NCBI GenBank assembly: GCA_019054805.1
Contig: JAHQIY010000010.1
Location: forward strand, 2,277,501-2,341,500
DNA length: 64,000 nt
Reading direction: 5' to 3'
Source of the DNA: Brachionus manjavacas
Lineage: Eukaryota > Rotifera > Eurotatoria > Ploima > Brachionidae
Below the pieces are notes generated by a model, which was not told where the DNA came from, did no database searches, and saw nothing but the letters and a program-made list of their open reading frames with translations. Both the position numbers and the translations under genes were made by a program. Positions 95-50,019 of the stretch are shown here, piece by piece (the first letter of the stretch is position 1; each line of letters opens with the position of its first letter).

Positions 95-1363
95 AGAGGA
101 ATACAGGATTTATATTGAAATTTTGCCCCTAATTTAATTTTGAACCCAAAGTCACTGAATTAAAATTTAAGCTACAAAATAATTATATTTTTGAGCTTTT
201 TTTGAAAATAAAATTTAAAAAAAATCTAATAAATACATAATATTGTAAATTGGTTTAAAAGTTTTAATAAAATAGCAAAATTAATATAACATTATTTTAA
301 AAAAATATAAATTTCAAACAACACGGTTTCAATACTAAGCAAAATTGAAAAATTGGATTAAAAATATATTCAAAAAAAACTCACAAAATTTTTTATTTTT
401 AATGCGTGCTTTTTATTTTTCTTATGTAGTATTTAGTTTTTAAGTCTTAAAAAAAATTTGTTTCTTATTTATAAAAATTTTTATTTGAAAAGCTTCGATG
501 CTTAAAAATAAATTTCTAAGTTAAAGTTTTTCTTTTCTTTTTCTCTTAGACTTAAGCCAAAAACTTTTTATAAATAAGAAACAAATTTTTAATCCAATTT
601 TTCAATTCAATTTAATGCTTAAAAATTAATTTTCTAAGTAAAAATTTTTCTTTTCATTTTCTCTTAGACTTAAGCCAAATCTTTCTATCATCAGCTTTTC
701 AAATAAAAACTTAATTATATAAATTAAAAAAAAATTTATCTTTTTAGATGTCAAGCGGCTTTGACCTATTCGTTAATCAAATGTGGACAACAAAACTTCC
801 AACAAGCAGTGCTCCATCAAAATTATTAGCCTTGATATTAGCTCACCCAAAAACTCTCTCCTCCAACCCTTCTGGATACCAATTAGAGCAAATCGATGAA
901 AACGAAACCCCAATAATGCTAGAGTCCAAAATTCAAAATAATTTTGAATTTTGGACTCGTATTTTATTCCACAAAAATTTTTTTTGGATCAGTTTGACTT
1001 TTTTTATGTTAATTTTTTTTTTGATTGTTTTCCTTGCTTATTTTTTGAAAAAAAAAGTATTTTACCAAAAAGTTTGTAATCTTTCCAACAATTTGGTTAA
1101 TGAAATTGATTATTCCTCAAGAGCAACAAGGAGCAATAAGTCAATTCCGCAATTCGTGGAAGCCTACGTAATTTTTTTATAAATCAATTTTTTTTTAACT
1201 AATATTCTTTTTCATTTTAAAAAAGTATGTACAAGAAATGAAGACCTTTAGTCCAAAATTAAGTCCAAAAATAAATGATAAAAAAGAAACTAGTAAATTA
1301 GAGAATGATAGTGATGATGACTTAGAACTTAAATCAAGTCAATCATTTGATTTAAAGATTTAA
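95..1363 (+). repeat. Left long inverted arm of the 16.2-kb element
   Basis: After the near-perfect tip (95-135) the arm shares short blocks, in inverted collinear order, with 14,690-16,302. The blocks are the cttcgatgctt block near 490, ttagacttaagcc (545 and again near 665, a local ~115-bp tandem duplication), aaatgtggac near 780, and a 21-base identity at 1225-1245. The arm contains the whole two-exon membrane-protein gene at 748-1363. Confidence 0.65.
748..1363 (+). CDS. Small single-pass membrane protein, two exons (748-1167, 1226-1363)
   Basis: Unrecognised protein of about 186 residues. Exon 1 encodes a Ser/Pro-rich N-terminus without a classical signal peptide, then one strong hydrophobic span at about residues 77-97 (FFWISLTFFMLIFFLIVFLA), then a basic stretch. 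A 58-nt intron (gtaatt...aaaaag, 1168-1225) joins in phase 0 to an acidic, Ser/Lys-rich tail ending in FDLKI. I prefer the spliced form because the unspliced frame stops within the intron, while the spliced tail is open for 46 codons. The gene lies in the left inverted arm, and a diverged copy of it is present in the right arm on the other strand. It therefore belongs to the element rather than to the host. Function unknown; an anchored one-pass protein with a cytosolic or luminal tail is all that can be said. Confidence 0.6.
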
Positions 1364-1399
1364 GTCTCTTATCAAATCGCTTTTCGTTGTTTGTCATTT

Positions 1400-1995
1400 T
1401 TTTGCGTTTTTTAAAAGACAGTTTTTTTGGTCACAGCATTTTTGGTCATAGCATTTTTGGTCACAGCATTTTTGGTCACAGTTTTTTTGGTCACAGCATT
1501 ATTCGTCACAGCATTATTGGACCCAGTTTCTTGTTGGCAAGTTTTTTAAAGTTTTGCATTTTTTTGCGTTTTTTTAAAGACAGTTTTTTTGGACACAGAA
1601 TTTTTGGACCCAGCATTTTTGGACCCAGAATTTTTGGACTCAGTTTTTTTGGTCACAGCATTATTGGTCACAGCATTATTGGTCACAGCATTTTTGGACC
1701 CAGTATTTTTGGACCAAGTTTTTTTGGTCACAGCATTATTGGTCACAGCATTATTGGTCACAGCATTATTGGTCACAGCATTATTGGTCACAGCATTATT
1801 GGTCACAGTATTATTGGTCACAGCATTTTTGGTCACAGTTTTTTTGGTTACAGCATTATTGGAACCAGTTTTTTGTTGGCAAATTTTTTAAAGTTTTGCA
1901 TTTTTTTGCGTTTTTTTTAAAGAAAGTTTTTTTGGACACAGAATTTTTGGACCCAGTATTTTTTGACCCAGTATTTTTGGACCCAGGATTTTTTG
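1400..1995. repeat. 15-bp minisatellite with higher-order structure
   Basis: Tandem 15-bp units of the form attattggtcacagc and the variants atttttggtcacagc and atttttggacccagc run from about 1425 to 1990. A longer block (tttttgcgttttttaaagac) recurs at about 1401, 1566 and 1907, so the array is made of two larger repeats. Since 15 is a multiple of three, three frames stay open by chance through the array on both strands; I do not regard these as genes. Confidence 0.9.
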
Positions 1996-2599
1996 GACCC
2001 ATTATTTGATACAGTTCAGTATAGTGCCAATGGTTTGGTATGGACAGGACACTTTAACTAGTGGAACTTGCTATTGGACTCTTAATAGAAGAATTTCGAA
2101 AGAAAGTGATTGAAGAAGCAAAAAAATGTAATTAATAAAAAACCCAGTTTTTTTTACAACAGTTTTTTTGGCTACAGTTTTTTTGGACACATTTTGTTAT
2201 TTTTTGTATTTAAATTTTAATTGTAAAATAAATTAATTTATTTTTTGACACCCAAATCAATAAATATTTTTTTATAAAATTTTGCATTTTTTTTTTATTA
2301 ATTTAATTATCAAATAATAAAATAAAACAAACAAATATATAAAAATTAATGTGACATTTGTTTTTAAAAATTTCAAAAAGTTTTCGAAACGAATTTAGCA
2401 TTTGTTTTAAAAATAACTCAAGAGCTAAGACCTGAAACTTATTACCTTACCTTAGCTTAGACTTTATTTTTGAAATTTCAAAGACAAAATAATCAAATTA
2501 ATTCAATGGAGCCTGGTTCTGAAGTTATTTTTGAAAGAACAAATGGTTTATTTCTAATATTTATTTTGATTTTCTGTTTTGACTTTTTATTAAGAAAAA

Positions 2600-2917
2600 A
2601 TGCAGAAGGGAAGAATCCTTAAAACTTCAAAATCGAGATGCGTGGTGACATGGATTGAGAATGGCGTTACTCGTGCAAAAATTGTAAACAAAACCAAAAT
2701 TATTCCATGCGCCCGTTGGTCATCTTGCTGTTTTAGTACTATAAAAATATTATATAATGGTTTGGTACAATTACCTTTGCTATTTTTAATGATTTTTGGT
2801 ATCTTGTGGGATAAACTGATATGTCGAACTGCTTTACTTACATATGGAATTATTTTTTATTTGAACGGAATATTTTCAAACTATCTGGCTCTGGAAAATA
2901 CAAATAGTAAATCATAG
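2600..2917 (+). CDS. Hypothetical membrane protein, 105 residues
   Basis: Not recognised. The N-terminal 40 residues are basic and polar (starting MQKGRILKTSKSRCVVTWIE), followed by a Cys-rich hinge and two closely spaced hydrophobic segments at about residues 50-68 and 78-95. It could be a hairpin membrane protein of the 16.2-kb element. The segment CVVTWIENGVTRAKIVN looks like a structured small domain. The ATG is preceded by an AT-rich leader and the frame is the only open one here. No intron is needed. It is followed by a dispersed repeat shared with 5885-5972. A chance ORF cannot be excluded in such AT-rich DNA, but the balanced amino-acid composition argues against it. Confidence 0.4.
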   Translation: MQKGRILKTSKSRCVVTWIENGVTRAKIVNKTKIIPCARWSSCCFSTIKILYNGLVQLPLLFLMIFGILWDKLICRTALLTYGIIFYLNGIFSNYLALENTNSKS

Positions 2918-3004
2918 TGAGTGAATCGTCCGAATTTTTAAAAATTACATATAATCTGATTGGTTGAAAAAATAAATTTGATTGGTTGAATTTGGAGTGA
3001 ATGA
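2916..3004 (+). repeat. Dispersed ~85-bp repeat, copy 1
   Basis: gtgagtgaatcgtccgaa, a TTAAAAATT core, ttgattggttgaa and ggagtgaatgat recur in the same order at 5885-5972. The first part recurs inverted at about 6020-6062. All three lie between genes inside the 16.2-kb element. Confidence 0.6.
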
Positions 3005-3110
3005 TTTTTGTTAAAAAATCAAATTTTTTTATTCAAAAAAAGGAACGTATAAAATATGAAAAAAAAATCACAAAAAACAGCCAAATAAAAAAAAAACAAA
3101 ATTTTAAAAG

Positions 3111-4915
3111 TCAAACAATTTCTTTAAGATAGTTTAAACGACACTGTTTTAATAGTATCTGTTTCAAGCACGTATCAGCTCGATTAGATGCTCTAAAATA
3201 ATATGAGGTGGTGAAATCGTTGAATTTCTCTAAACCTTCTTGGTTAAAATGATTTACATTTAAATTTTCTTTATAAAATTCATGCAGATGATTGACAAAA
3301 GAATGCATATATGGAGTAATATCGGTTTGATGATAGACTTTTAAAAAATAACTTAACCATTTCTCAGTTTTTGTTTTAATATCATGCGATTTTGGCGGCT
3401 TTTCCGTTTTCATGCTTAAATAAATTTGAAAAAAATATTTCCAAATTAAACTGATAAATTCTTTTGATTGTAATCTATCACTAAAAATATTAAATTCTAT
3501 TTTTCAAATATTTTGACTCTTTTGAATGCCGGCAGCTTATTTAGAATTGATGAAAATGAATTTTTCTCACCGTTATAAAAACTAATTGAAATCCCGCAAT
3601 CTTCTTTTAAAAAATTACGCATTTTATTTAGTGCACGGTGTTTATTTTCGTTAAATATTGAACTGTCGCTAAATTTGTCAATTCTACATAAATCGTGAAT
3701 TAGTAATTCAAACAATGTATCACTTATTCTTAAAAACAAATGAAGCGAATCAATAATAAAATTCTTAAATGGCATCTCCGGCAAAACAGGCTCGACTTTA
3801 TATCCTAAATGTAGAAATTTCGAATTTTTTTTTGACTTTTTGATTATTTCGGAACCCTTTTCATTTGATCTTTTTTTGGAAATTTTAGTTGAAAATAACT
3901 GTTCTTTAGGACATTCACACCACAGACAAGGAAAATTTGAATTTGCACTGTAAAGACCCAAAACAATTGACATCATTTTCCAATCAGATGAAAAATAATA
4001 TACAATAGATATTATTTTGTTCTGAAAACAAAATGTTGTCATTGTCTTTATTTCATCCCATAATGCTCTTAACCAAGTTTTGACACTTACATAATCCTCT
4101 TTTTCAACTCTAAATATCCCTAAAGGATAAACACCATTTACTCCAGCTGCTTTTTTCCCTTCATTAATCACACTAAAGCAAAAGTTTATAACCTTTGTAG
4201 TTCTTGAAAATATGGTTCCGTCGGCTGTTAACTTAATTTTGACCGTATCGCCACTCAAAATTTTTCTATCATAGAGAAATTTGAGCTTGTTTGATATTTG
4301 GCCACATGGGTTTACATAATATCCTTGCTCTATTTCATAAACTAAAAACATAGAGTTTAGACGCTCTCGTTCTAAGCGAATATGATGTAAACTTGGAACA
4401 TTAAGTTTGAAGTCGGTTTTTAATGAGCTAAATGTTTTGTCAGATAAAAGATTCCTATCTTTATAATACAAAAAAAATTCGGTTGATTTGTCTTTTCCGA
4501 AGTCAGAAAAGATCTCTAATTGATAATTTGTATTTTCCAATTGAGATTTTTTTTCTTTTAGCTTAACTTTGTAAAAGTCTAATTGAAAACTGTTAAGAAA
4601 AGGAACAATTTCACCTAAAACTGACCGAATTTTTAGATTCAATAGGCTTTTTTGACTTTTACGTAATTTGAAAAAATCCTTTCTTTTTCTTATATTACCA
4701 AAGAGTCTTTTTTGAAAATCCTTAATTTTTAGTTCTCGAGCAAGCAATTGGTCTTTGAGCTCTTGATTTTGTTTATTTAAAAAAAAATTGTAACAACTCA
4801 GCTTCTCAAGGCTATAATTTTTAAATATGACCTCAAAATTTAATTGATTAAGTTTGTTAATTAATTGATTATAATAATCTGTAGATAAAGTTATAGACAT
4901 TGTGATGAATAGCAA
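3111..4915 (-). CDS. CxxC transposase-like protein of the 16.2-kb element
   Basis: Two frames (4915-3497 and 3480-3111) read as one protein of about 600 residues if a single A-run differs by one base, possibly an assembly error. Order of parts: N-terminal coiled-coil region rich in K/E/L (about 40-150). Then a catalytic-looking core with LTADGTIFSR (about 228), a PLGIFRVEKEDY strand, and FSSDWKMMSIVLG followed by NSNFPCLWCECPKEQLF, a Cys-rich knuckle. Then DSLHLFLRISD, and a C-terminal part with TPYMHSFVNHLHEF and FNQEGLEKFNDFTT. I recall this arrangement from uncharacterised multi-copy proteins in many invertebrate genomes. The D...D plus CxxC pattern resembles transposases of the CACTA/Transposase_21 type, but I cannot assign a superfamily. 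It is transcribed opposite to the DDE gene at 11,310. Confidence 0.55.
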
Positions 4916-4934
4916 GACTAGTAATAAAGGATCT

Positions 4935-5165
4935 TAAGTTAATGAATTTATTGATATAAGTTAATTTTTACAAAAATATCTACTCCCAATGGCAAACAAG
5001 CCCAATTTCGCAAAATGAAGCGAATCAATTTTTTAAAAATGTGAGTTGAAAATAGCTGTTCTTTAGAACTATCACACCACAGACAAGGAAAATTTGAATT
5101 TGTACTGTTCAGATCCAAAACAATTTCCAACCTTTTCCCACAACATTTTCCAACCTGAAGAAAAA
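4935..5165 (-). pseudogene. Partial, internally deleted duplicate of the adjacent transposase-like gene
   Basis: On the minus strand this stretch encodes NSTNSNFPCLWCDSSKEQLF, nearly the same as the CxxC knuckle of the gene at 3111-4915. It then jumps to a piece matching its IDSLHL region. Duplicated blocks of the neighbouring gene lie just upstream of that gene's start, so this is a local tandem remnant. Confidence 0.6.
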
Positions 5166-5223
5166 TAATTAAGAATAGATTTAAAAATAAAATAAAGAGA
5201 AATTTATTGACTTTGTTTTAAAA

Positions 5224-5739
5224 ATGATAAAGATCAGGACAAGAAATAACGAATCATATAAACCCGGTTTCTATTTATTTAAATCAACCAAGTCAATTGA
5301 ATCAACAAGTTCAATTCCCAAATATCGGTCAAACAAGTCCAAATTATCGAAAAATCCAAAAATAAACAATGAATTAGAATTTTTTTTTAAAAATATTAAT
5401 TTTCAAATCGGCAAACTTTTAAAAAATCACCGTAAAAGTTCACCGCTAAAGGGGTTTAAATTTAATATTTCTCATAATTGTTTCAATATTTTAAAAAAGA
5501 AAATTGGGATTAGTACAAAGTATCAAGATGCGTCGTGTTTATTTTTAGAAAATCAATTGTTAAATCAAAGATTTTTTAATGAAACTGACTACTCCGAAAT
5601 TGAAAATAACTTATTAGAAATAAAAATCTCAAAACCAAAAAAATTAAAAATCTTTTCAAAAAATTTAAAAGAAGAAAATTTGGAATCTTCTGCTCAAGCT
5701 TTTTTTAAATTTGTTGTTAAAAAATGTAAATTAAATTAA
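5224..5739 (+). CDS. Basic hypothetical protein, 171 residues
   Basis: Not recognised. It is intact, very Lys/Asn/Ser-rich and strongly basic. The N-terminus (MIKIRTRNNESYKPGFYLF) is followed by a low-complexity Ser/Lys tract and then a more ordered middle (about residues 55-130). The C-terminus is Lys-rich (FFKFVVKKCKLN). There is no signal peptide or membrane span. It could bind nucleic acid, judged only by charge. It is divergently arranged with the transposase-like gene (start 4915, minus), with the ~300-bp gap between them partly filled by the duplicated fragment. Confidence 0.45.
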   Translation: MIKIRTRNNESYKPGFYLFKSTKSIESTSSIPKYRSNKSKLSKNPKINNELEFFFKNINFQIGKLLKNHRKSSPLKGFKFNISHNCFNILKKKIGISTKYQDASCLFLENQLLNQRFFNETDYSEIENNLLEIKISKPKKLKIFSKNLKEENLESSAQAFFKFVVKKCKLN

Positions 5740-5884
5740 ATTGTCTTTGTATTGTTAATAAAATTTTTTTAAATTAAATATTTCATTTTTCTTATAATAA
5801 AATTTACCTTAAATTGCATTTTTTTAATTTAATATTGAATAAATTATTATAATTTAATTTATGGTCTATTAAAAAATACTTAAC

Positions 5885-5972
5885 ATAGTAAGTGAATCGA
5901 GTGAACTCTTAAAAATTTATCCAAAATTTGATTGATTGAAAAAATTTTGCAATTTTGGAGTGAATGATCGGA
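5885..5972 (+). repeat. Dispersed ~85-bp repeat, copy 2
   Basis: Same order of blocks as 2916-3004: gtaagtgaatcgagtgaac, TTAAAAATT, ttgattgattgaa, ggagtgaatgatcgg. An inverted part copy follows at about 6020-6062 (aaaattcggacgattta, then attcactca). Possibly a regulatory or replication dyad of the element. Confidence 0.55.
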
Positions 5973-6179
5973 TGAATAATTATAATTTTATTTATATCCA
6001 ATAAAAAATGGTAAAAAGAAAATAAAAATTCGGACGATTTACATTGAATTCACTCAAGATGTGTGAAATATATAAAGAAATTTTCTCAGATTTATTGCGA
6101 TATTGGCTCCCAGAATGTAAAAGTTATTCTGTTTGGACTGTAATTTTTTTTAAAATTAACAAAATACCAAATAAATTTA

Positions 6180-6356
6180 TTAAAAGGCCTTTCTTGTGAC
6201 CAACTTGGATATTTTTCGGTTTTTTGGTTCATCGATTGGCATTTTCATCAACGGTTTTCTCCAAACTGTAGTGTAAGGATTCGGATTTTTTGGACAAATA
6301 AAAATTTTCTTAGCAATTTTTGGTCTGGTTTTATTTTTTTTATTTAGTTTTTTCAT
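6180..6356 (-). CDS. Small basic protein, 58 residues
   Basis: A short intact frame runs from an ATG at 6356 to a stop at 6180. It starts with a Lys/Asn-rich stretch (MKKLNKKNKTRPKIAKKI), then FICPKNPNPYTTVWRKP and LMKMPIDEPKNRKISKLV. The Pro/aromatic-rich middle is unusual for a chance frame in AT-rich DNA. Not recognised. Possibly a small DNA-binding or accessory protein of the 16.2-kb element, or an exon of a longer gene. Confidence 0.35.
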   Translation of the reverse strand: MKKLNKKNKTRPKIAKKIFICPKNPNPYTTVWRKPLMKMPIDEPKNRKISKLVTRKAF

Positions 6357-6529
6357 TTTTTATCTTCTTATTCAAAAAAAATAATTACAAAACTCTTTTT
6401 TATTTTTTATTTTTCAAGTTATAAAAAATTTTTTTGAAGATAATTTTGTTTTTTTTGTTAAAATAAAGTATTAAATTCTATCAATTTTAATTTTATAGTT
6501 TTAATACTAAAAGAAAGAAATGGTTAGTC

Positions 6530-8420
6530 TGGAAATACTCGCCTTAACTCACAAGTGATCACCACGACGCTTGGCATTTTTCCTCAGCCTTGAGCATGTT
6601 CATGACTTTTGTGGTCATATTGACTCTGAACGATGGAATCATATCAAATAAATATCGCAACTAAATATAAGTGTTATAGCTACCTTAGATAATGACTCGT
6701 ATCATGCCACCAATTTCGATGTTTAATAATTTTTTTTGAATTTTTTTTTGTCACAACTTGTTTTTGTACTCAGAGGTACGCTCAGCAAAAACGACTCTAG
6801 GTTTTATTCAATTAAATAAATAAAAGAAAATTGATTTTTTATAAAATTTATTTTTTATTAAAATAAATATTAAAAAAATGTTTTTTATTTAAATTAAAAA
6901 TATATAAATTAGTTTAAAAAGGAATTGTCATCGGGAATTTTGTCATAGAAACCAATGAGGTAGAACTCACAATGGCACTTGGGCACAATCAATTGAAGTC
7001 GACTCTCTTTTGTTCGGTCTTCTATTAGGTAATTTTGTGGCATGTCTTTGGGCGGATAGATCAGCTCTTGACTCAGCCAGAACTCAAAGTTCGTGTTGGT
7101 GTTGTTCAAAGTGGCAAAGTACTGCATGTTTTCCAAATGACCGCTCCACGATATTTTTTCCAAAAAGCGCTGTGACTTGCAGACTGGCTTGTGCAAATGT
7201 TGTTCTACATTGGCTCTGACTGCTGATATGATCACGTACTCTTGCTGCTTGTCGGCGCTGGGCACTCGCTTAGGATTGGGTATAAAGCTCAAAAAGGACT
7301 CGTCACTGTGCCAAGAGTCGTCCAAGCTCAGCTTAATTTGGCTTTTTATCAACTGAATGGACACATTTTAGCTGACAATGTCGCCCATTCGATTCGTTGA
7401 ATGAAAACCATAGATCAAGTTGTCAAAGTGAGGATTGGATTGATTGGGCGGCATGTCGCCGCAGAGCACATGTGAGTTGAGGTTTTTCGCTGTCCAATTT
7501 GTTGAGTAGTTCTTCGAACTGGTGTTCGCCACTTTGGCCAACTTGACTCTGTTCTCATGATTGTCCAGTGCTCAATTCACTTGATTTTCTGCTCAATTTT
7601 TGCCGATTTTTGTACTGAGACAAAATGTGGTTTTGCAAAAGTTGATCAGTGAACAAATCGTACTGCTTGAGAATGTGTGCCGACAAATTTTGTCTCATCA
7701 TATTTGTCTTGTTGTATATTTCGAACAAAATGTACACAACATCCTTATTGACCGTGTTCCACTTTTCTTTTAGATTTCGAATGGACAAATTGTGTTTTGG
7801 ACAATTGGTGATCTGAATGGACACTTGACTTGACATGGACATGTTGGTGAGTGCGTCGTTGGCAGACTCGTTGCCAAGTCTTGGATAAAAACTGCACTGG
7901 CACGACTTTTCGCGTTCATACTCTATGCAGTCAATTTTCATGAAAAAATTCCTCACCGCCGGCTTTGAGTCCAAAAATTTGATGGACCTTTCGTTCATCT
8001 CGAGCATGAACAAGTCTGTTTCACTTTGGTTGGCAACTTTTTCACAATTGCCGCCTCCTGGCGACATCAAATCCATGCTAGTCTGCTTGACACCGAATTT
8101 CATCAGCTCTATGTTACTGGCTCTCCGGCCTGGCTCTCCGCTTCAGCTTGTCTCCAAACGACACCAAGTCAAGCTTGAGACACGAGTTCATCAAAAAGTC
8201 CTCGCTGTTCATCTGTATGCCGTACTGTTCGCTTGCCGAATACCAATAGATCACATTTATCATTGGCAAATCGAACTTGAAGCTGACTCGCTTGAAATGT
8301 CTACTCAAAATGGTTTTTCTTGGTCGAACATTGGCGAACAAACTGCCTCGATTGATGGGACGAGTTGTGGCGCTGAGTAAATTTTTGATTTTCTGCAAAA
8401 AACGTGATGTATCTTGGACC
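6530..8420 (-). pseudogene. Decayed fragment of a large host gene inside the 16.2-kb element (possibly bridge-like lipid transfer protein)
   Basis: Base composition is clearly higher in GC than everything around it. Minus-strand frames at 8398-8114, 8103-7555, 7364-6909 and a short piece at 6650-6530 read as successive parts of one long protein, in order and broken by frameshifts and stops. Pieces include NVRPRKTILSRHFKRVSF, LPMINVIYWYSASEQYGI, RNLKEKWNTVNKDVVYILFE and IPSFRVNMTTKVMNMLKAEE. The style recalls very large chorein-like lipid-transfer proteins (BLTP1/tweek type), but this is a guess from memory. It has no intron-like gaps in the best parts, so it may be a reverse-transcribed or captured exon block. 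It is dead, unlike the element genes around it. Confidence 0.5.
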
Positions 8421-8685
8421 AGAAAAAATAGCTAAATAAAATTTGTCATTTTAGATGAATATTTATCAAAATAAAGCATTAAATAATTAAATAAGGATAA
8501 AACTCACTATGTGATTCTGCTTACAAATACTTTCTAAAAAAAATTATAGATTTTTTATAAAATGAAACAAAATTTTTTTGCATGTACATTTATTAGAATG
8601 AAAAAATTTGGATCACATTTTAAAATTTTAAAATAAGGCTCAATAAATTTTAATTTTTAGCCAATGCTTGACTGCTAAGAATACT

Positions 8686-9234
8686 TTAACAGTTACTTAA
8701 TCTATTTTTTTGCGCATATCTTTGATCGGTGAACCATTTGGCAATTTTTTTCTCCGTGGCATTGATTTTCGTAGCTAGAATAGAGATCTCATTTTTATTT
8801 GGTCTATCATTAATGTTTAAAAAAAAATCTCTTAATATATTCTTGTTTTTACACGAAAAAACATCATTAACCTTTATTTTTGCATTTCGCTTCTTTAGCT
8901 GGGTTCTTTTCCAAACAAACCAATGATTAATTTTTTTTAAAGTTAAGTTTGTTTTATTTGAAAGCATTATTTTTGATTCCAAAGAGGGATATGGATTTTC
9001 TAAATTTTCGTTGAGCCATTTTTCTAAAATAAATTTACATTTGATGTCAATATAAATTTTAGGAATCTTTTTTTTCCTGAAATTATAAACTTCTATAGAT
9101 TTCATAATTTTTGTAAAATAACTTTTTATCCATTCTATAAATAAATAAAAGACTTCTTTAATGATATTTTTATTTCGAATGATTTCTAAAATTTTTTTGC
9201 AATCATTTCTTTTTCTTTCCATTTCTAAAATCAA
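8686..9234 (-). CDS. Double-homeodomain protein (TALE-like plus typical homeodomain)
   Basis: An intact frame of 182 residues. Residues about 70-120 look like a TALE-class homeodomain: NPYPS, then helix residues LTLKKINHWFVWKRTQ, where the family has N-x-W-F-x-x-x-R; the key Asn of the recognition helix is present as NHWF. Residues about 128-180 look like a second homeodomain: RDFFLNINDRPNKNEI, ILATKINATEKKIAKWFTDQ, with KWF in the recognition helix and Lys where Asn is usual. Both end in basic residues. Known homeodomains bind DNA as transcription factors. Here the gene sits among element genes between the host fragment and the foldback cluster, so it may be captured cargo or an element-encoded regulator. 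The start could be ATG 9234 or the internal Met at 9222. Confidence 0.55.
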   Translation of the reverse strand: MILEMERKRNDCKKILEIIRNKNIIKEVFYLFIEWIKSYFTKIMKSIEVYNFRKKKIPKIYIDIKCKFILEKWLNENLENPYPSLESKIMLSNKTNLTLKKINHWFVWKRTQLKKRNAKIKVNDVFSCKNKNILRDFFLNINDRPNKNEISILATKINATEKKIAKWFTDQRYAQKNRLSNC

Positions 9235-9414
9235 AAAATATAATTTTATATTTATTCTGTTTATTAAAGGAAAAATTTTAAATAAAAGAATTCTAAAAGA
9301 AACATTGAAAAAAAAATTTAAAATATTGTGATAGACTACGTAATTAATCTACTTTACCGATACTTCTATTTTTAAAAAATGATAAATCTATACTAAAAAT
9401 AAAAAAGATTTGCG

Positions 9415-9482
9415 ATTTATTTCAGAAAATCGAAAAAGTGAATTGAGTGAATCTTTTCACTCAATTTTTCTATATTTTAAGT
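9415..9482. repeat. Direct flanking repeat with internal palindrome, copy 1
   Basis: gtgaattgagtgaatc, then cactcaatttttctatatt, preceded by tttcagaaaat, is repeated almost exactly at 10,180-10,250. The gtgaattgagtg/cactcaattt halves form a hairpin. The two copies bracket the three-armed foldback cluster. Confidence 0.7.
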
Positions 9483-9514
9483 TTTTTCAATTCTTTGCAA
9501 AATAATATCGTAAT

Positions 9515-10090
9515 TCTGTACGAATTATAAATTTTTTAGATAAAAAATATTTCTAACACAGAATCTCGTTATTTTCCTTTTCTTTTTCGATCAAAATTTT
9601 TATTTATTCCTTTTTTTCTTTAAAAAAATAATGTATTTTTTTGACCTAGAATCCAGCAGATGTTTTTTCAATGTGCTTTGAATAAAGTCTAGGTCAAAAA
9701 TTAACATTTTTTTTAAAAGAAGTTTGAACCAGACTTTATCCAAAGCATATTAAAAAAATCTGCTGGATTGAAGGTCAAAAATATACATTAATTTTTTAAA
9801 GAAAAAAAAGGAATAAATAAAAATTTTGATCGAAAACGAAGAGTAAAATAACGAGATTCTGTGTTAGAAATATTTTTTATCTAAAAAATTTACTATTCGT
9901 ACAGAATCTCGTTATTTTACTTTTCTTTTTCGATCAAAATTTTTTATTTATTCCTTTTTTTCTTAAAAAAATAATGTTTATTTTTGACCTAGAATCCAGC
10001 AGATGTTTTTTCAATGTGCTTTGAATAAAGTCTAGGTCAAACATTATCATTTTTTTTTGGAAGAAGTTTGAATAGAAAATAAGAATGATA
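9515..10090. repeat. Three-armed foldback cluster (arm, inverted arm, arm)
   Basis: A ~185-bp unit occurs at about 9515-9705, inverted at about 9720-9897, and again direct at about 9898-10085. Each arm contains acagaatctcgttatttt, cgatcaaaattt and a smaller hairpin made of gacctagaatccagcag and aaagtctaggtc. Adjacent arms can form long hairpins in two alternative pairings. No protein is encoded. Confidence 0.85.
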
Positions 10091-10179
10091 AAAAAAATGT
10101 ATTAATATCGAGTTTCTGTGTTTTTAATGCTTTATTTCTGAAAAATTTCTCAGCACTATAGATTTACGATTTTTTTTCA

Positions 10180-10250
10180 GAAAAGAAAATCGGAAAAGTG
10201 AATTGAGTGAATCATTTCACTCAATTTTTCTATATTTTAAGTATTTTCGA
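10180..10250. repeat. Direct flanking repeat with internal palindrome, copy 2
   Basis: Second copy of the 9415-9482 unit with the same gtgaattgagtg hairpin. It ends just upstream of the secreted-protein gene at 10,345. Confidence 0.7.
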
Positions 10251-10344
10251 TTCTTTTCAAATTTAATTTTGTGTTTTTTCAGTAGGTTTTCACTAGCTTT
10301 TCTATAGAAATTTTTTATTTTGTTCTCTATACAAGGTCATTCAA

Positions 10345-10961
10345 ATGGAAAATTTTTTGTGTTTCTTCTTTCTTTTTTTAAACATCGAATTTCATTCACC
10401 CATGTCAACTGCACAAATACTAGCATCAACAAAACAGAATTTTTATTCACAGATTAACCCTTCATCAGGTGACATAAAAATTGACGAGGTAGCACACGGA
10501 TTTGCATGTGACTCAAACGATCGTTGTCTGAGAATCAAAGAATTTTTTATTCCGGCAAATTACAGTAATAACTGTTATGAGAAAAATATTCCAATTCAAT
10601 TCGGAAATAGCCCACAAACTGGATATTATCCACCAGATGGAGATTTGATTGAGACAATTCAAATAAATTATGATCACTGTAGAAAGATTAAAAAGTAATT
10701 TTTCTGCTTTTCAAATAAAAAATTTGGTTTATATTAATAAATTAATGCAGATTTCTAATAAAATCAAAAAAAATTTTGATAATTGTTGGTGAAAATATTG
10801 CCTTTTCTCCAATCAATGATATAGATGACACAGTTGGATGGCTTTTGATAAAAAATTTCGATTTAATCGATTTTGTTTTACATAAATTTAATTGGCTTGA
10901 TGAAAATAAAAACAAAATGAAATTTATGATGGCTTCAAAGGTATTTTTATAAATTTTTAAT
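10345..10961 (+). CDS. Secreted Cys-containing protein, at least two exons (10345-10694, 10751-about 10941)
   Basis: Exon 1 begins MENFLCFFFLFLNIEFHSP, a good signal peptide. It continues with a Cys-bearing domain (FACDSNDRCLRIKEF, NNCYEKNIPIQFGN, GYYPPDGDLIETIQINYD). A 56-nt intron (gtaattt...atgcag, 10695-10750) joins in phase to an exon encoding IIVGENIAFSPINDIDDTVG and LIDFVLHKFNWLDENKN. The 3' end is uncertain: reading on past 10,941 gives a stop at 10,961, while a further short exon after 11,025 is possible. About 185-195 residues. Family unknown. It is co-directional with the DDE transposase gene downstream and lies within the 16.2-kb element. Confidence 0.55.
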
Positions 10962-11309
10962 TAAATATATTTTTCAATATAGAATTTTAAAAGGATGCTA
11001 CAAAGCTTTTGATGTTTATTTTTAGAAAGATATTTATTTTATATAGATGCTTTCTAATTTTGATTGAACAAAACAAAAAAATCGAACTTGAAGAAAAAAA
11101 AAAGTCGAAAAAATCAAAATAAGAATTAAGTGAAAAAAGTTTTATTTAAAAAGAATATAAATAACTAAAATTAGAAATTTTTTAATTTTTTAAACACATT
11201 GTTATTAATTTTTTAATTTATTCTTAAATTTTTATAAAATATTATTTTAAAAATTTAAAAGTTAGATTTTAAATAAAATAAAATAATAAATTTAGAAAAA
11301 AAGATAACG

Positions 11310-14300
11310 ATGGCTTCTTATCGAAAAATCAAAACTGCTCGTTCATCGCATCGTTTTTGTTTTGTGTGCCTTAAAAAAAAATTCGTCTTTACGCTTGAAA
11401 TTATTAAATTTTGAATCAATTGTATATGGTTATAAAACTCATCAAATTTTTATTAAGAAAGGTTCGAGATGCTGTGGAATTCATTTAGAGAATGATTCTA
11501 ATTTAAAAAAAGACCTTTTTAAAATTATACCTACTAAATTAATAGAACATGAAAGACAAATATTTGACATGTTTGAGTATCTAGAATTAAAAGAAAAATC
11601 AATTTTCGAAAAATTTAAAGACATATCAACTCTGGATGAAAAACATTGCAAAGAAATCACTGGATGGTCAAAAGAAAAATTCATTTCTTTCTCAAAATAT
11701 ATAACAAGTGTGAATGATAATTTACAACGATCCAAGGAACAATTAATATTACTTTATCGTTATTGGTTATCAACAGGATCCAATCAAAAAACGTTGGCAT
11801 CACTGTTTAGTAAAAATACGACACAAGTTCAAATTAGCAATTACTTGTCAGTAATAAGAAATGCTATACACAAAGAATTTGTTCCTTATTTTTTGGGTTC
11901 AAAAAAAAAAAGAGAGTTCTACTTGAAAAATAATAATATTATGGTAAAAAAACTTCATAATTTAGAAGAAGATGTTTTGGCAATAGTTTGCGATGGAACA
12001 TATACTCGTTTAGAAAAAAGTTCTAATAATGGTTTTCAATATCGTTGTTGGAGTTCACAAAAATCGGACTCTCTTTTAAAACCTTTCATTATTTGTTGTG
12101 CAGACGGATGGATTATTGATTGTTATGGGGCATTTCAAGCAAGCGATAATGATGCTGTAATTCTAAAATATATATTAAAAACAGATTTCGACTTAAATAA
12201 CCTCCTTCTCCCAAATAAAACTATCCTTTTCCTTGACAGAGGTAACTATATTAATAAAAAAAAAATTTAATATATAATTCAAATTAAAGGCTTTCGTGAT
12301 ATATTTAAATTTTTAAAAGAAAATTATAAATTCGAATGTAAACTACCAACTTGTCAACAGATCGAGGAAAGAACTGATCAGACATTTTCAAAATCAAAAC
12401 AATTAACTACTGAACAAACAAGTGATACAAAACTTGTCACAAAAGTAATAATAAATCAAAAAAAATTTTTTTTAATTTTTTTAAATAAGTGTCGGTTTAT
12501 TGTAGAGAAACAAATAGGTATTTTAAAAAATAAAAAGGCACTTGACAATATTAGAAATTCAGAAGCAGGTCACATAATGATTGACTATAGAAATTGTTGC
12601 GCAATGATTAATTTTGATTTTAAACCTAGCTGTTCTGATGGAGTAAATGCAGGAAAAATAGCAAAAAGGATATTAAAAAAAATAGAAAAAAAACAAAACA
12701 ATCTTGAATTCTTGCTTGGTAAACAATTGGATACTAAAGAGATTGTTCCAATCAATTTCTCAGAAATAGATGATTTTCCTGTTTTAAAACGTAAAACAAT
12801 GCATAATAAAATTTTTTTGGGATCTTTTCAATTAAGGCAAGCTAAAAGCTATATAAGCGATTTAGCATTAAATCCGACTGCTTTTATTGTTAAAAATGAT
12901 TTAATTGGTAAAAAATCAGAAAATATGTATTCCAAATTCAAGGGGACAAAAATTATTTCAGTAAAATTACCTTCACGACATAAGCGAGGCAAAAAGAAAA
13001 ACATTAATTCTCAAAGTGAAAATCGTATCGACTCATTTAAAAATTCATATAAAGTTTTTGTTCAATATACACCTAAGTTAGATTGTTCTAAAGGAATTAA
13101 TTGTAAGACATTTAAATTTTTTTTTCTCCTTAAGATTTTATAAATAATTGACTTAAAATTAAAGCATACATTTGTAGCTGTTTGTCTGGTCGGAAAGTTG
13201 CTGGTTGTTGTAGTCATGTTGCAGCATTAATATACTATTTTGCTTATGCAAAACACAAAGAAATTTTTTCACCTGCAGAAGGTCTAAATAATATCCTAAT
13301 TAAAATGGACAGTAAAACTCCTCCAAATGACCCAATATATTACAGAAATAAAAGAAGAAAGTTACATGTTTCAAGTAGCTCAGATTCATCATGTAGTAGT
13401 GATGAATCTGATGAAAATCGTTCTGAAATTGAAAAAAGTAAAGAAATTGGACAATATGTAACAAACAAATACAATTTGGATAAAAAACAAAACAGTGATT
13501 CAATGAAATTCATTTGCAAAATTAAAAAATCAAAAAATGATCAAAAAACAGAGAACGAGAGTGGATCATTTGTTTTACTCGGTATTAAATTAAAAGATTT
13601 TGAAAATCATGTTCCCAAATGGTCTGCAATAATAGAGTATCATGGTCTTAAAGATGTTTATGTAAAGGATACGTGTACTTTTGATTATCATTTGTTAGCA
13701 CTTTGGTATTTTTCAATTATTAAACCAAATGGAATGATGAATTTAGATTCTGGTATAAAAAACATTTTAGATAATATTTTAGTTCATATAAATAACTTAA
13801 ATTGGGATAAGGCAAGAGAAGTTTGGATAAACTGTATTATAGAATATAAAGAAAGGCCATTTAAAAGAGACATGATATATCAATTATCATTATATGGAAG
13901 TGAGGTAGAATATTTTGTTAAATATATGGTTAATCATCAAAAACATGAATTATGGCAGAAATGCAGTTCAAATTGTATTAACAATCTTAAAATAATAATA
14001 AGTTACGATTCAGAACTAATTTTTTTTAAAAAAGAAAATGATATGATCAAGATCTATTCTTGCTATAGCGAAAAATGCGCTCAATGTAGATTAAGTATAA
14101 TTCCAGAAATAAGATTTATCAAAAGGCCAACTTATGTTTATATTCAGTCCATTAATAACAACATTTACGTCGAAGAATTACCGAAAATAATTACTATCGA
14201 AAATTGTAAATACCGATTTTTATACTCAACTGTTCATAAACCAGGACACTTTTTAGGAATTTTTGAAATTAACAATAATCTTTACTCCGTGGATGACATA

Positions 14301-14420
14301 ACAAAAAATGTGAAATATTTATGTTCTTCTAAAAAGCAATTAAATCAAAAAGAAAGTGAGAATTATTTTTATAATCAATTAGCAACTACCATTTCTTTTT
14401 ACTTTTTAGTGGAAAATTAG
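11310..14420 (+). CDS. DDE transposase with N-terminal Zn motif, SWIM finger and cysteine-protease-like C-terminus
   Basis: Four exons (11310-12241, 12290-12444, 12490-13102, 13165-14420) with three 45-62 nt GT-AG introns in matching phases give about 984 residues. One A-run near the start is a base out, possibly an assembly error. Parts in order: a Cys/His motif (RFCFVCLK ... GSRCCGIHL). A helix-turn-helix region (YWLSTGSNQKTLASLF). A DDE_Tnp_4-type nuclease core with D in VCDGTYTRLE, D in LFLDRGFRDIF and E in FIVEKQIGILK, as in Harbinger/ISL2EU transposases. A Lys-rich linker. A SWIM zinc finger CSC-x9-CCSH (residues about 570-590). An acidic Ser-rich linker. Finally a papain-like pattern with DTCTFDYHLLALW (Cys box) and HKPGHFLGIFE...YSVDD (His/Asp box), as in ubiquitin proteases. 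All catalytic residues are present, so it may be functional. It is the best candidate for the mobiliser of the 16.2-kb element, though it could be a nested transposon. Confidence 0.75.
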
Positions 14421-14689
14421 ACTTATAGTAAAAATTTAATTTTTTTGTAATGATATTAATAAATAAATAAAAAATTATTTTAATTAAATTTTGATTATTT
14501 GATGAAAAAATTAAAAATTTTATATTGATAATTTAAAAATAAAACATTTAATATTCTGAAGAATTGAAATTGCAATTCAAAATCAAAATTCTACTTAATT
14601 TTTTTTTGATTTTAATTTATTAATTTAAAATACAAAAGGAAATTAATTTATATTCGCAATTTAAATTTAGGATCAAAATATTACTTAAT

Positions 14690-16302
14690 GGTAATTAAAT
14701 AAAAAAAACACAGACTTATTAGAACATTTTTAATTAATCATCTTGGGACTTGTATTGAAGGTCTTCATTTCTTGTACATACTTTGAATATAAAAAAAATA
14801 AATGGTTTTGCTATTTTGTTCAACTTTTGAATGGTATCTAAAAAGCTTGGAACTTTGAGCTAATATGAATGCTAAAACTTCGATAAACTACTATTTGTGG
14901 GAATCAGCGTTGAATACTTGCAGGTCGTCCACATTTGACCAATTCTCAAAAAGTTTTTAAAAAATTATTTTAATTAAGTTTATATTTAAAAAATGAAAAA
15001 AAAATATTTAGCTTAAGTCTAGATTTAATTAAGAAAACGAGAAAATAAAAACAACGCTTTAAATAAAAATATTTATTTTTAAAACATTGAAGCATTTAAA
15101 ATAAAAATCTTCAATAAAAAAAAAATCTTTAAACTTACAATTTAAAATTAACTACATTAAAAGAAAAAAAGCACACATTTACAAACATTTTTTTTAACTT
15201 TATTGAGTTTGTTCATTTTTCTTGAAATAACAAAATTTTTCATGACAAACAAAGTATCAATTTTAAAGGGAATAATTTCGTTCGTATTTTCACCATATGA
15301 AATTATGTTTCAAAAATATATTTAAATGCAAAAAATCGTTCAAAGTATGAAAAATTTTTCAATTTAAAAAAAAATTCTTTAATATTATAAGTCATAAATG
15401 CTCATATAAAAACTTATAAAATGAATGAGTTCGAAAGTAATAAATAATTTTAAATTTGAATTGGATCAATTTATTTACTCAATAGATTTATAATGAGAGT
15501 AAGGTTAGAGTTTAATTAGAGTTAGAAGGCAATTTAAAAATACAAAATTCTCAAAAAATTATCTATTAATATTTGAAAAGTTTAATAAAAGTAAAAATTG
15601 TGTGAGAAATTTTGCAAATATATTAAAGCAGTCCACAGTTAACTCTTAACCAAATTAATTTTTGGTTTAAAACATTTAGGTCTTAAATAAGAAACGTGGT
15701 TAGTAAACAAGTGACTTTTTTCTTGTCAATGACCATAAAGAAGACATTTTTATAAACTCTACGGTGCCACCATCTCAAAAGCTCAGCCGCTTGTCCACAT
15801 TGTGCACCAATAGCGCGTCGAGCAACTACCATATTTCGTTGCCGATGGAATCGGGCAGCTCGATAGACATGGCCACTTTCATCTTGCCTGTTGTCTGAGA
15901 GCTTACGCAACTTAAATATCATGTAGCCGAACGAGAACTTGTCTCTTGAACTAGAATTTTGGAGAGAGTTTCATATTTTTTTAAATAAAAATCTAAATCC
16001 TAAATTCCTAAAACTTAGACATCTTATAAAATAATATTGAAATGCTTTTAATGTAATTTTTTTTTTGCTTAGTTTGATTCAAAATTGAAATAAAAAAAGA
16101 ATTTATTGTTAAGTAAGATTTGTCAAAAGAAAAATTTTATTTTCCAAATTGGAAAACTTTGGAACAAAAATTGAAAAAACATTTTAAATATTCAAAATAA
16201 AGTTTAAACAAGGTATCTATATTGACAAAAATAAAAAATTTTGAGTAATCTAATCAAATACAAAATAGGGGCAAATTTTCAATGCAAATCCTGTATTCCT
16301 CT
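14690..16302 (-). repeat. Right long inverted arm of the 16.2-kb element
   Basis: The inverted counterpart of 95-1363. It shows the 21-base identity at 14761-14782, gtcgtccacatttgacc at 14924-14940, tagcttaagtctaga near 15010, a cattgaagcat block near 15090, and the terminal tip at 16262-16302. It contains a degraded minus-strand copy of the membrane-protein gene of the left arm, with most of exon 1 missing. It is about 800 bp longer between tip and first internal block than the left arm, partly through a GC-richer patch at 15,690-15,960. Confidence 0.6.
15690..15960 (-). other. GC-richer patch, possible host exon fragment
   Basis: A ~250-bp stretch has a base composition unlike its AT-rich surroundings. 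On the minus strand two broken frames carry protein-like stretches (MSIELPDSIGNEIW, ALLVHNVDKRLSF). No family recognised. It may be a second captured or inserted host fragment within the right arm. Confidence 0.3.
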
Positions 16303-16973
16303 TTTGAATGATTTAAAAAAAAATAATCTCACTGTCACAGAACTTGTGAAAAAATATAATACACCTCAGAGTACTGTTTCTTCTATTCTTAAGGCAGAGA
16401 ATCAAGAAAAGATAAAAAACTTATATGAAAATAATTTAATCAATCCTAGCTCTAAAAGAATGAGGGGTTCTAATTATGTTAAAATTGAAGAGGCCCTTGA
16501 TCACTGGTTCAAATCAGTTATGGCATATAAAAATATTACTCTTAACGGTCCTTTGATTCAAGCCCAGGCTATTAAATATGCAACTATGTTAAATCATACT
16601 GATTTTAAAGCTAGCAATGGATGGTTAAACGGGTTTAAAAAAAGGCATAATATTTTATTACTAATATACGATTTAGGCATAATATACGATTGTATTTTGC
16701 CCAAAAGAACGTAAAACGGTCCTTTATTCATTAATCAGTTGTCTAAAATGGATCAATTTTGTAGCGTCGATCAGTCTTTTCAAAGTAAAATTAATAAATA
16801 TTTTTCCTTTTAATATATTTATTATTTTTAAATAAACAATAATTCCTTTAAAAAAATTTATTTTCAATATTTTTCTTCCCATCCTCTAACATGCAAATTT
16901 GATTAATACGATATTCGTTTATACGATGTCCTTTTTTTCCGCCCAAACACATCGTATTATCCAGACTCGACTG
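16303..16973 (+). mobile_element. Right half of the pogo/Tigger-type transposon, internally deleted
   Basis: The frame continues the N-terminal transposase: a first helix-turn-helix (LKKNNLTVTELVKKYNTPQS, TVSSILK) and then a CENP-B-type second one (GPLIQAQAIKYATMLNH, ASNGWLNGFKKRHNI). The DDE domain is missing. A short piece of the C-terminus (LSKMDQFCSVDQSFQSKINK) follows directly, so this is a deletion derivative. The element ends in cacatcgtattatccagac and tcgactg (16948-16973), the typical pogo terminus CAGTCGAGTCTGGATAATAC read on the other strand, followed by the TA target dinucleotide. Confidence 0.85.
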
Positions 16974-47890: not shown

Positions 47891-50019
47891 ATGCAAATTA
47901 CAAATATCAATCAAAATATTATCCATAATCAAGTAAATACATTATTAAATAATCCTAATACTATTAATCTAAATTTTATAGCATACAATTGCTATGGTTT
48001 TAAATCGAATTGTAAATTATTAATAAATTAATCGATAGTTATGATGTGTGTTTCTTTAGTGAACACTGGCTGGCAACTGAGGAAGAAAACCTCTTTAAAA
48101 AAATCAATTCAACTCACAACTTTTATTTTAAAGCAAGTTTTAGTCTAGAGGAGAGAAATAGTGGGAAAAGATAAGAGGGTAGGCCGTTTGGCGGTTTATG
48201 TTGGGCTGTGAGAAAGAATCTTGTTGTACAAAAAATCGATTTTTATGAATATGATGTTAGTTCTCTAATTGTTAAAATATTTGATTCGAATGTATACTTT
48301 CATGGTGTATGGTTACCATTTGACAATCATAAGAATGAACGCTTTATGAATTTTAATTCTGATCTTTCATTATTAAAATGTCTCATCAAGGATAACAACG
48401 AAAGTGTGAATATTTTATTAGGTGATTTTAATGCGTCATCTAAAAGAGACTCACCAACCAAATTTGATGCTGAGTTTAGAGAATTTATTAGGTCTAATCA
48501 AAAATGGAGGCATTATGTCTCAATGATTTTTGCTCCGACCAAAATCGAACTGTAAATGAGAATGTTGAACAAAACTTAGAGAAGCTTAGTAAATTTATGC
48601 TTAAATGTGCACGTTTAGCTGAGAAAGATTCAGAGAAAATTAATGCAATTTGTCAAAGTAGAGGCTCTCATAATGAACAACTCACTCAACTGATAAGAGA
48701 AAACAAGCTCTCTAATGTTTTTTATAAGTTTAAAAAAAACGAAAGTAGAAATTTTCGGAAAAAAATGCGCAAAATAAATCGAACGAAAGCTGCGACGGTT
48801 TTTAAACGAGATTATGTACGTATTGACAAATTGCTAGATCTTAAGAGCGATGACTTTTGGAGAAAAATAAAGAATTTTAAAAAAATGAATTCAGTTAATG
48901 AACCCTGTAACAAGCTTGATATTAATGAATTTGGCCTCTTTGGATTTGGAGAGCAATAATTTCGTATTATTTACAGTCAAAAATAATAGTTAAAATTAAA
49001 AATAAACGCTCTGAAGTATTCGAAACATCTCAAGGGGTCAAACAAGGCGGTAAACTTTCTGGTTTTTTGTTCAATTTTTTTTTTAAATGAATTAATAGAG
49101 CAATGTCTAGAGTTGAATATTGGTGGAAAAATTGGGCAAACAAATGTCTCTATAGTTGCATATTGCGATGATATTCTGCTCATAAGTCCGACTTTTTTCA
49201 CTTGAACATTTTAACTAATGTCTGCAATGGATATGCTGAAAATTGAAAATGGAGTTCAATCCTTTGAAATCGAATCTAATTTCGTTTGGTCAAGATTGTT
49301 CTGAGAACAATGTTAAAATGAATGATAAATTTATACCTCGAAGTAATAATATGGTCTACTTAGGTTTTCCAATTGGAGATAATGATTTTATCAATCAATT
49401 TATTGAAAAGAAATTTAAAAAAGTAGAAAGGAGCTTTTATTCATTATACACGCTTGGGTGCAAACCAAATGGATTGAGTCCAACGACGATCAGTTTTATA
49501 TATAAGCAATTTTGTCAGTCAATTTTTCGCTATGGTCTGGAATTCTATTATTTGAACAACAAAATGATTGATTCACTTAATATACGACAAAATATACTAA
49601 TAAAGCGATCGATTGGATTGAGTAAATATGTCAGAGCAAAGCCTCTGTTTAAATGTCTGAGGATTGAAAGTATTGAGAGTTTATACCTAAAACATAAAAT
49701 TTTTCTATTCAAGCAAGTAAAAATGAACTTATTTACACATCAAATTTATAAGGAATTAAAAATAATTAATAGTCAAAAAGTATTACGAAGTGATAATGCT
49801 ACTCTTTTTGAGCAGCTGAAAAATGTAAATAAAAAAATTAACGTGAGTGACTGTACAATAGATGTTGTAAAAGCAATTAAAATGATAGAGTCTCTCACAG
49901 AATGTCTAAATCAAGGGTTGATTGACTCAATTAATTTCGTTTTAAATGACTCAATAAATGGCCTAATGTATGATAAAATTAGAGTGTTGGCTGGCTTACT
50001 TAATAATGGTTTTACTTAA
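47891..50019 (+). pseudogene. LINE ORF2: endonuclease and reverse transcriptase, broken
   Basis: An endonuclease domain starts at MQITNINQNIIHNQ and NLNFIAYNCYGFKSN, then VCFFSEHWLA, SLIVKIFDSNVYFHGVWLPF and ILLGDFNASSKR. A linker follows (48,504-48,959, helical, basic). The RT core is then truncated to its second half: SQGVKQGGKLSGFLFNF, then VAYCDDILLISPTF with the catalytic YxDD as YCDD, and WKMEFNPLKSNLISFG. The C-terminal thumb continues open to 50,019 (QNILIKRSIGLSKYVRAKPL). Several frameshifts and a deletion remove the first RT motifs. Confidence 0.8.

What the first reader, a model, noticed from the sequence alone, without database searches (positions are those of the whole stretch)
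95..16302. A 16.2-kb element of unknown class interrupts a pogo transposon
The two halves of one pogo transposase frame lie 16.2 kb apart in the same orientation, and each abuts an inverted copy of AGAGGAATACAGGATTT...TTTGCCCCTA. A 6-bp near-duplication (cttgaa/tttgaa) flanks it. Between the ends are mostly open genes with introns. Its size and ends recall Polinton-like giants, but no polymerase, packaging or capsid gene is visible, and its DDE_4/SWIM/protease gene is unlike theirs. It may be a new class of large cargo-carrying DNA transposon.
Basis: partly seen in the sequence, partly recalled or inferred. Interest (0 to 1): 0.92.

Follow-up and report, generated by a model that had tools for sequence, protein, structure and literature searches.

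The report
Large multi-gene Spy-like rotifer transposon
A 16-kilobase jumping DNA element, apparently from a Brachionus rotifer, sits inside another transposon; it resembles the normally small Spy transposons but carries extra genes, including a homeodomain gene and a protease fused to its transposase, which suggests that this kind of transposon can grow large and complex.

Summary
In detail: one insertion (96-16301) splits a pogo copy whose own two ends lie either side. A related uninterrupted pogo on contig C6 gives the empty site ...CTTGAAA|TTTTGAA.... AAA^TTT targeting without duplication is the mark of Spy transposons (PHIS superfamily), and the transposase is DDE_Tnp_4. So it is not a new class and not Polinton-like, but a strong variant: published intact Spy are 1.2-5.9 kb with one ORF, in three other phyla. 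Here the element is 16.2 kb. Its transposase ends in a USP-fold protease, and a set of homeodomain gene, gene A and transposase recurs in divergent copies (many of these are duplicates of each other). Part of the length is later load: a nested 3.15-kb transposon and a 1.5-kb hobbit-gene piece. Weak points: one empty site; no second copy read end to end; no Spy reference for a tree.

The parts
96..16301 (+). the inserted element (16,206 bp), between AAA (93-95) and TTTT (16302-16305) of pogo
   Evidence: uninterrupted related pogo at C6:734670/734671, exact join
96..143 (+). left terminal inverted repeat, GAGGAATACAGGATTT...
16254..16301 (-). right terminal inverted repeat
   Evidence: the right 363 bp have 34 matches in the genome, this one included
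748..1363 (+). two-exon gene for a small protein with a hydrophobic stretch (exon ends and membrane nature by eye); only other copy found is C30:73086-73471
   Evidence: no Pfam match
2913..6061 (.). nested 3.15-kb DNA transposon (later insertion); its ORF 3497-4933 (-) has a sub-threshold DUF1258 match
   Evidence: long matches of 95-98% on C4, C7 and C5 and many short derivatives; uninterrupted at C30:160371
6920..8408 (-). piece of a hobbit/BLTP2-family gene in several broken frames, probably captured
   Evidence: one continuous 87% match to C8:2972853-2974345, the only other copy listed; Pfam Hobbit E=2e-10 for ORF 8114-8431, sub-threshold 5.8e-4 for 7555-8142, none for 6909-7367
8686..9222 (-). 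homeodomain gene with two homeobox stretches, the first TALE-like
   Evidence: Pfam Homeobox_KN 5.7e-16
10345..10940 (+). gene A, unknown function, exons 10345-10694 and 10751-10940 (a further exon is possible)
   Evidence: no relative of similar length found
11310..14420 (+). transposase gene: cysteine/histidine-rich N-terminus, DDE_Tnp_4 domain, weak SWIM match, USP-fold protease; exons about 11310-12241, 12290-12444, 12490-13102, 13165-14420; reading frame broken once in an A-run of exon 1
13572..14417 (+). C-terminal USP-fold cysteine protease domain

Best explanation
It is a cut-and-paste DNA transposon of the PHIS superfamily that behaves like Spy, grown into a large multi-gene element. 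Shown: its ends start at GAGGAATACAGG (or AGAGG, see report); it sits exactly between AAA and TTTT of a pogo copy with no duplicated base; it holds a DDE_Tnp_4 transposase gene; that gene and gene A, and in part of the family a divergent homeodomain gene, recur together elsewhere in the genome. Inferred: the transposase binds the ends, cuts flush at GAGG/CCTC and joins them to a flush cut in the middle of AAATTT. The fused USP-fold domain would strip ubiquitin or SUMO from the transposase or from chromatin and repair factors. The homeodomain protein would regulate the element's genes or bind DNA as an accessory factor, as the Myb-like partner does in Harbinger. The element enlarges by nested insertion and by picking up host DNA.
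For: Exact empty site without duplication inside a pogo with both TIRs. AA precedes AGAGG at 15 of 21 termini, P=2e-6 against base composition; 12 of 18 without the window's two and one duplicate, P=7e-5. DDE_Tnp_4 E=1.2e-10; DDE residues present by eye. 28 of 31 other gene-A loci lie within 2.5 kb upstream of a transposase match on the same strand; 7 of 16 other homeodomain matches lie divergently beside gene A (6) or a transposase (1). USP fold, Cys invariant in 6 of 6 rows and His in 5 of 5 rows that reach it. Transposase relatives in Hydra, wasps, a butterfly and a mussel, i.e. in the phyla published for Spy. C11 holds part of the left side (1494656-1495311) and the right end (1520147) in one orientation, 25.5 kb apart.
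Against: Only one empty site. No second copy was read end to end with AAA/TTT at both sides. The three termini on C6 make no clean unit; two of three lack the AAA flank. Six of 21 termini lack AA. Many of the loci that share the gene order are near-identical duplicates (same scores), so they are not independent, and the homeodomain matches in them are weak (E 3.5e-5 to 7.7e-4, 26-33% identity). The C30 relative shows no gene A or transposase in the 12 kb read. Spy membership by tree was not testable. Published Spy have one ORF. cgSpy loses about 12% activity per added kb, so a 16-kb unit should move poorly. The transposase frame is broken in this copy: dead, or a homopolymer error.
Confidence: 0.78

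Rival explanations
1. A small ordinary Spy-like element inserted in pogo and swelled in place by nested insertions; it never moved as a large unit.
For: At least 4.6 kb is later or captured load: nested transposon 2913-6061 and hobbit piece, both absent from the C30 relative. Known intact Spy are at most 5.9 kb.
Against: Gene A and transposase, in part with a homeodomain gene, recur together elsewhere. Left-side DNA recurs at 88-89% at C30:73067-74617 and C30:160371-161372; left side plus right end recur on C11. Without nested transposon and hobbit piece about 11.6 kb remain.
Confidence: 0.2
2. A composite moved in trans: two Spy-type ends that happen to enclose unrelated genes and a decayed transposase.
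For: Transposase frame broken; termini mostly found without a partner within 1.5 kb; C6 looks rearranged.
Against: The transposase family and gene A are repeated as a pair in the genome.
Confidence: 0.1
3. A Polinton/Maverick or virus-like giant.
For: Size and inverted termini only.
Against: No polymerase B, ATPase, capsid or retroviral-type integrase match in the 14 of 25 ORFs of at least 80 aa that were scanned in Pfam; no 6-bp duplication.
Confidence: 0.01
4. Assembly artefact joining two pogo copies.
For: Reads were not available.
Against: Both junctions are flush with the two inverted termini and, put together, give the uninterrupted pogo sequence exactly; the contig is 3.66 Mb.
Confidence: 0.02

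Closest known systems
Spy transposons (PHIS superfamily)
   Same: insertion within AAATTT without duplication; DDE transposase; terminal inverted repeats; relatives of this transposase occur in the animal phyla listed for Spy (passages of PMC4482050 and PMC11304231)
   Different: 16.2 kb instead of 1.2-5.9 kb; several genes instead of one ORF; C-terminal USP-fold protease; rotifer host (one search lists Arthropoda, Cnidaria, Mollusca)
ISL2EU
   Same: same superfamily; Repbase files Spy under ISL2EU (passages of PMC12730594)
   Different: makes AT duplications and carries a YqaJ exonuclease ORF; no duplication here and no YqaJ match in the ORFs scanned
PIF/Harbinger
   Same: DDE transposase plus a second, DNA-binding gene
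   Different: 3-bp TWA duplications and a Myb/SANT partner; here no duplication and a homeodomain protein
Ginger1, Ulp1-bearing Mutator elements, DUB-bearing Helitrons
   Same: transposition protein carrying a ubiquitin/SUMO protease domain (passages of PMC2836005 and PMC9741609)
   Different: other transposase superfamilies and other protease families; PMC2836005 also notes one Trichomonas protein with transposase_11 and Peptidase C19, the nearest architecture seen
Pack-MULEs
   Same: host gene fragments between terminal repeats
   Different: plant Mutator elements, none over 7 kb in the study cited by the review PMC6431247 (passages)

Membership tests
Spy | insertion between AAA and TTT without target duplication | tested here: met
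   one empty site; AA before AGAGG at 15 of 21 termini
Spy | PHIS-type DDE transposase | tested here: met
   DDE_Tnp_4 41.7 bits, cut-off 24.8
Spy | transposase falls in the Spy clade | not testable with these tools
   no Spy reference sequence held; the tree only groups the window with Brachionus rows
Spy | terminal inverted repeats | tested here: met
Spy | one ORF, 1.2-5.9 kb (descriptive in the papers read) | tested here: not met
   16.2 kb with several genes; hence called a Spy-like variant, not a typical Spy
ISL2EU | AT duplication | tested here: not met
ISL2EU | YqaJ exonuclease ORF | tested here: inconclusive
   no such match in the 14 of 25 ORFs scanned
PIF/Harbinger | 3-bp TWA duplication | tested here: not met
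PIF/Harbinger | Myb/SANT second ORF | tested here: inconclusive
   no such match in the 14 of 25 ORFs scanned; a homeodomain gene is there
Polinton/Maverick | 6-bp target duplication | tested here: not met
Polinton/Maverick | polymerase B, integrase, ATPase, capsid genes | tested here: inconclusive
   none in the 14 of 25 ORFs scanned
USP (C19) proteases | USP fold | tested here: met
   (predicted model)
USP (C19) proteases | Cys-His-Asp and peptidase activity | tested here: inconclusive
   residues conserved (roles recalled); activity not testable here

The most novel reading that the evidence does not exclude
Rotifers host a lineage of large, self-contained PHIS transposons with a recurring gene set (homeodomain protein, gene A, DDE-SWIM-USP transposase) that insert blunt into AAATTT and gather host DNA: a multi-gene, cargo-carrying branch of a group described so far as single-gene elements under 6 kb.
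Probability: 0.6. Interest if true: 0.72.

Novelty: new variant of a known kind. Interest (0 to 1): 0.62.

Why it matters
Cut-and-paste DNA transposons of eukaryotes are thought to be held small because activity falls with length (review passages; cgSpy data). A DDE element several times the published size of its group, with its own regulatory-type gene and a deubiquitinase/deSUMOylase-type domain fused to the transposase, makes two questions testable: what lets such an element stay mobile when large, and why unrelated transposons repeatedly acquire ubiquitin/SUMO proteases. It would also extend Spy-type elements to Rotifera.

Tried and rejected
6-bp target duplication: rejected, it is already in the uninterrupted pogo. 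C6:726236-747643 as a second clean copy: rejected; both ends are right-type, outer flanks AAA and ACA, and a third terminus at 767017 has ATA. C33 trio at 49626/64137/80980 as a related 14.5-kb element: rejected; the sequence outside the motif is identical too. Short-MITE reading: not supported. The 3-mismatch terminus search is near its control (76 against 41) and is not used for counts. Protein search with gene A: 46 candidates, none at E<=0.001 (proteins of very different length are not candidates there). Sequence search of the protease domain in the PDB: nothing useful (best E 0.47); the fold search decided. The original Spy paper is not held, so Spy features come from later papers. No paper joining Spy with rotifers, or a homeodomain gene or USP domain with PHIS elements, was seen in the listings; the library holds open-licence papers only and most listed papers were not opened. 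For one search I entered 50 of the 107 other transposase rows (rows overlapping or next to entered ones, and weak ones, were left out) and 31 gene-A loci made from the 50 other rows (19 second-exon rows of the same loci merged); one flank was mistyped there (CC for CA at C3), which does not change the count.
Full report
WHERE IT IS. The window is G000:C10:2277501-2341500 of an unnamed 114-Mb assembly in 61 contigs. The element's proteins find their nearest relatives in Brachionus: one B. plicatilis protein is 98% identical over 28% of the transposase query (P0014). The host is therefore taken to be a rotifer of or near the B. plicatilis group; this is inference.

THE INSERTION. Inverted termini of 51 nt, 86% complementary, stand at 93-143 and 16254-16304. 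Outside them are the halves of one pogo copy. Its right half encodes a Tc5-type HTH domain (HTH_Tnp_Tc5 E=3e-17; CENP-B_N only 0.031). Its right terminus ends at window 16973, and a left terminus with 4 mismatches in 24 is at C10:2277207, 294 bp before the window; both have TA outside. A related uninterrupted pogo lies on C6: 346 bp left of the join match at 96%, 234 bp and 297 bp right of it at 99% and 97%. The empty sequence is CTTGAAA|TTTTGAATG; the filled one is CTTGAAA + GAGGAATACAGG...CCTGTATTCCTC + TTTTGAATG. Every base of the empty site is present once: no duplication. If the ends were read as AGAGG...CCTCT, two target bases would be lost instead. GAGG is preferred because nothing is then lost and the site is the AAA^TTT of Spy; the copies cannot decide, since the search pattern contained that A (one of 21 has G there).

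THE TERMINUS IN THE GENOME. The 17-mer AGAGGAATACAGGATTT occurs at 21 places with at most one mismatch, control 0. The two bases before it are AA at 15 of 21 (AAA before GAGG at 14 of 21); leaving out the window's own two and one of two C15 loci with the same flank, 12 of 18 have AA (P=2e-6 and 7e-5 against the window's base composition). The six failures are CA, AC, AT, TA, TC and AG. The right 363 bp have 34 matches, the left 306 bp 8, self-matches included.

KINSHIP. Insertion in AAATTT without duplication is what PMC4482050 gives as the mark of Spy, against AT for ISL2EU and TWA for Harbinger (passages). PMC11304231 gives intact Spy as 1165-5910 bp with one ORF, in Arthropoda, Cnidaria and Mollusca (passages) and about 12% loss of activity per kb of cargo for cgSpy (section 10 read). 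The spliced transposase of the window (985 aa) matches DDE_Tnp_4 at E=1.2e-10 and SWIM only weakly (E 0.098, under its cut-off). Its relatives include Hydra, Phymastichus, Colias, Eretmocerus, Mytilus and Rotaria proteins (69 listed of 7992 scored candidates). In a tree of 44 DDE cores (the window and the 43 fetched proteins that cover at least 80% of the core) the window groups with P0014 (100/98) within 21 rows at 100/100 that hold the Brachionus rows named in the tree. No Spy reference could be added, so the clade is untested.

THE NEIGHBOUR GENES. Gene A (10345-10940, two exons read by eye) has 31 other loci (50 rows, second-exon rows merged); 28 lie within 2.5 kb upstream of a transposase match on the same strand (the three without are C4:37253, C11:1514566 and C24:751160). 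In the 20 fetched transposase loci, the window's included, gene A is found in 15; of the five without it, L050-L053 have long open frames of 512-1073 aa. Two B. plicatilis predicted proteins run gene A and transposase together (P0001; P0014), so the neighbourhood exists in a second genome. The homeodomain gene (8686-9222, minus strand; Homeobox_KN 5.7e-16, two stretches) has 16 other matches: 6 lie 1.2-1.5 kb from gene A and one 0.6 kb from a transposase, in divergent orientation as in the window; two lie on C11 in the decayed relative; the other seven stand apart and may be host genes. The seven match at 26-33% identity with E 3.5e-5 to 7.7e-4. Several of these loci are duplicates of one another (equal scores), so the number of independent cases is smaller than the counts; the ends of these copies were not read.

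LATER LOAD. 2913-6061 is a nested transposon: C4 has a full-length match at 95%, C7 covers 1-2761 of 3149 at 95%, C5 two pieces at 98% and 96%, and some 30 loci carry short derivatives of about 330 bp (40 of 52 candidates were scored); the C30 relative has the uninterrupted sequence. 6920-8408 is a piece of a hobbit-family gene, one continuous 87% match to C8:2972853-2974345, its only other copy listed, and absent from the C30 relative. That C8 is the host gene and the window piece the copy is inference. Without both, about 11.6 kb remain.

OTHER COPIES. C30:73067-74617 and C30:160371-161372 hold parts of the left side at 88-89%. C11 holds part of the left side, a split homeodomain gene, a gene-A exon in the opposite orientation and the right end at 1520147, over 25.5 kb. 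C6:726-767 kb is a rearranged cluster. None is a clean second unit.

VERDICT. The unit is real; its integration is Spy-like with good support; the recurring gene set is supported by repeated neighbourhoods; movement as one large block is likely but not shown.

Noticed in passing
window 2913-6061: Nested 3.15-kb DNA transposon with long 95-98% matches on C4, C7 and C5 and some 30 short derivatives; termini CAT..TGAGTGAA and an apparent duplication of one T at the C30 comparison site (by eye).
   Followed up: partly
window 1424-2007: Minisatellite with a 15-bp unit (TTTTTGGTCACAGCA, about 30 copies in the main array).
   Followed up: no
window 9424-10262: Nested inverted and direct repeats (arms up to 126 nt, 91%) between homeodomain gene and gene A; also on C30:156932-157621 at 87-90%.
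   Followed up: partly
L050-L053 (C1:123971, C9:1583452, C9:1609724, C23:707561): Related transposases with long open frames (512-1073 aa) and the protease domain but no gene A within the fetched flanks.
   Followed up: no
window 15270-15650: Stretch with about 70% matches on C8, C5 and C10, of unknown nature.
   Followed up: no
G000:C33:49626-81000: Three identical copies of a GAGGAAACCAG motif with identical outer flanks in alternating orientation, a separate repeat.
   Followed up: partly
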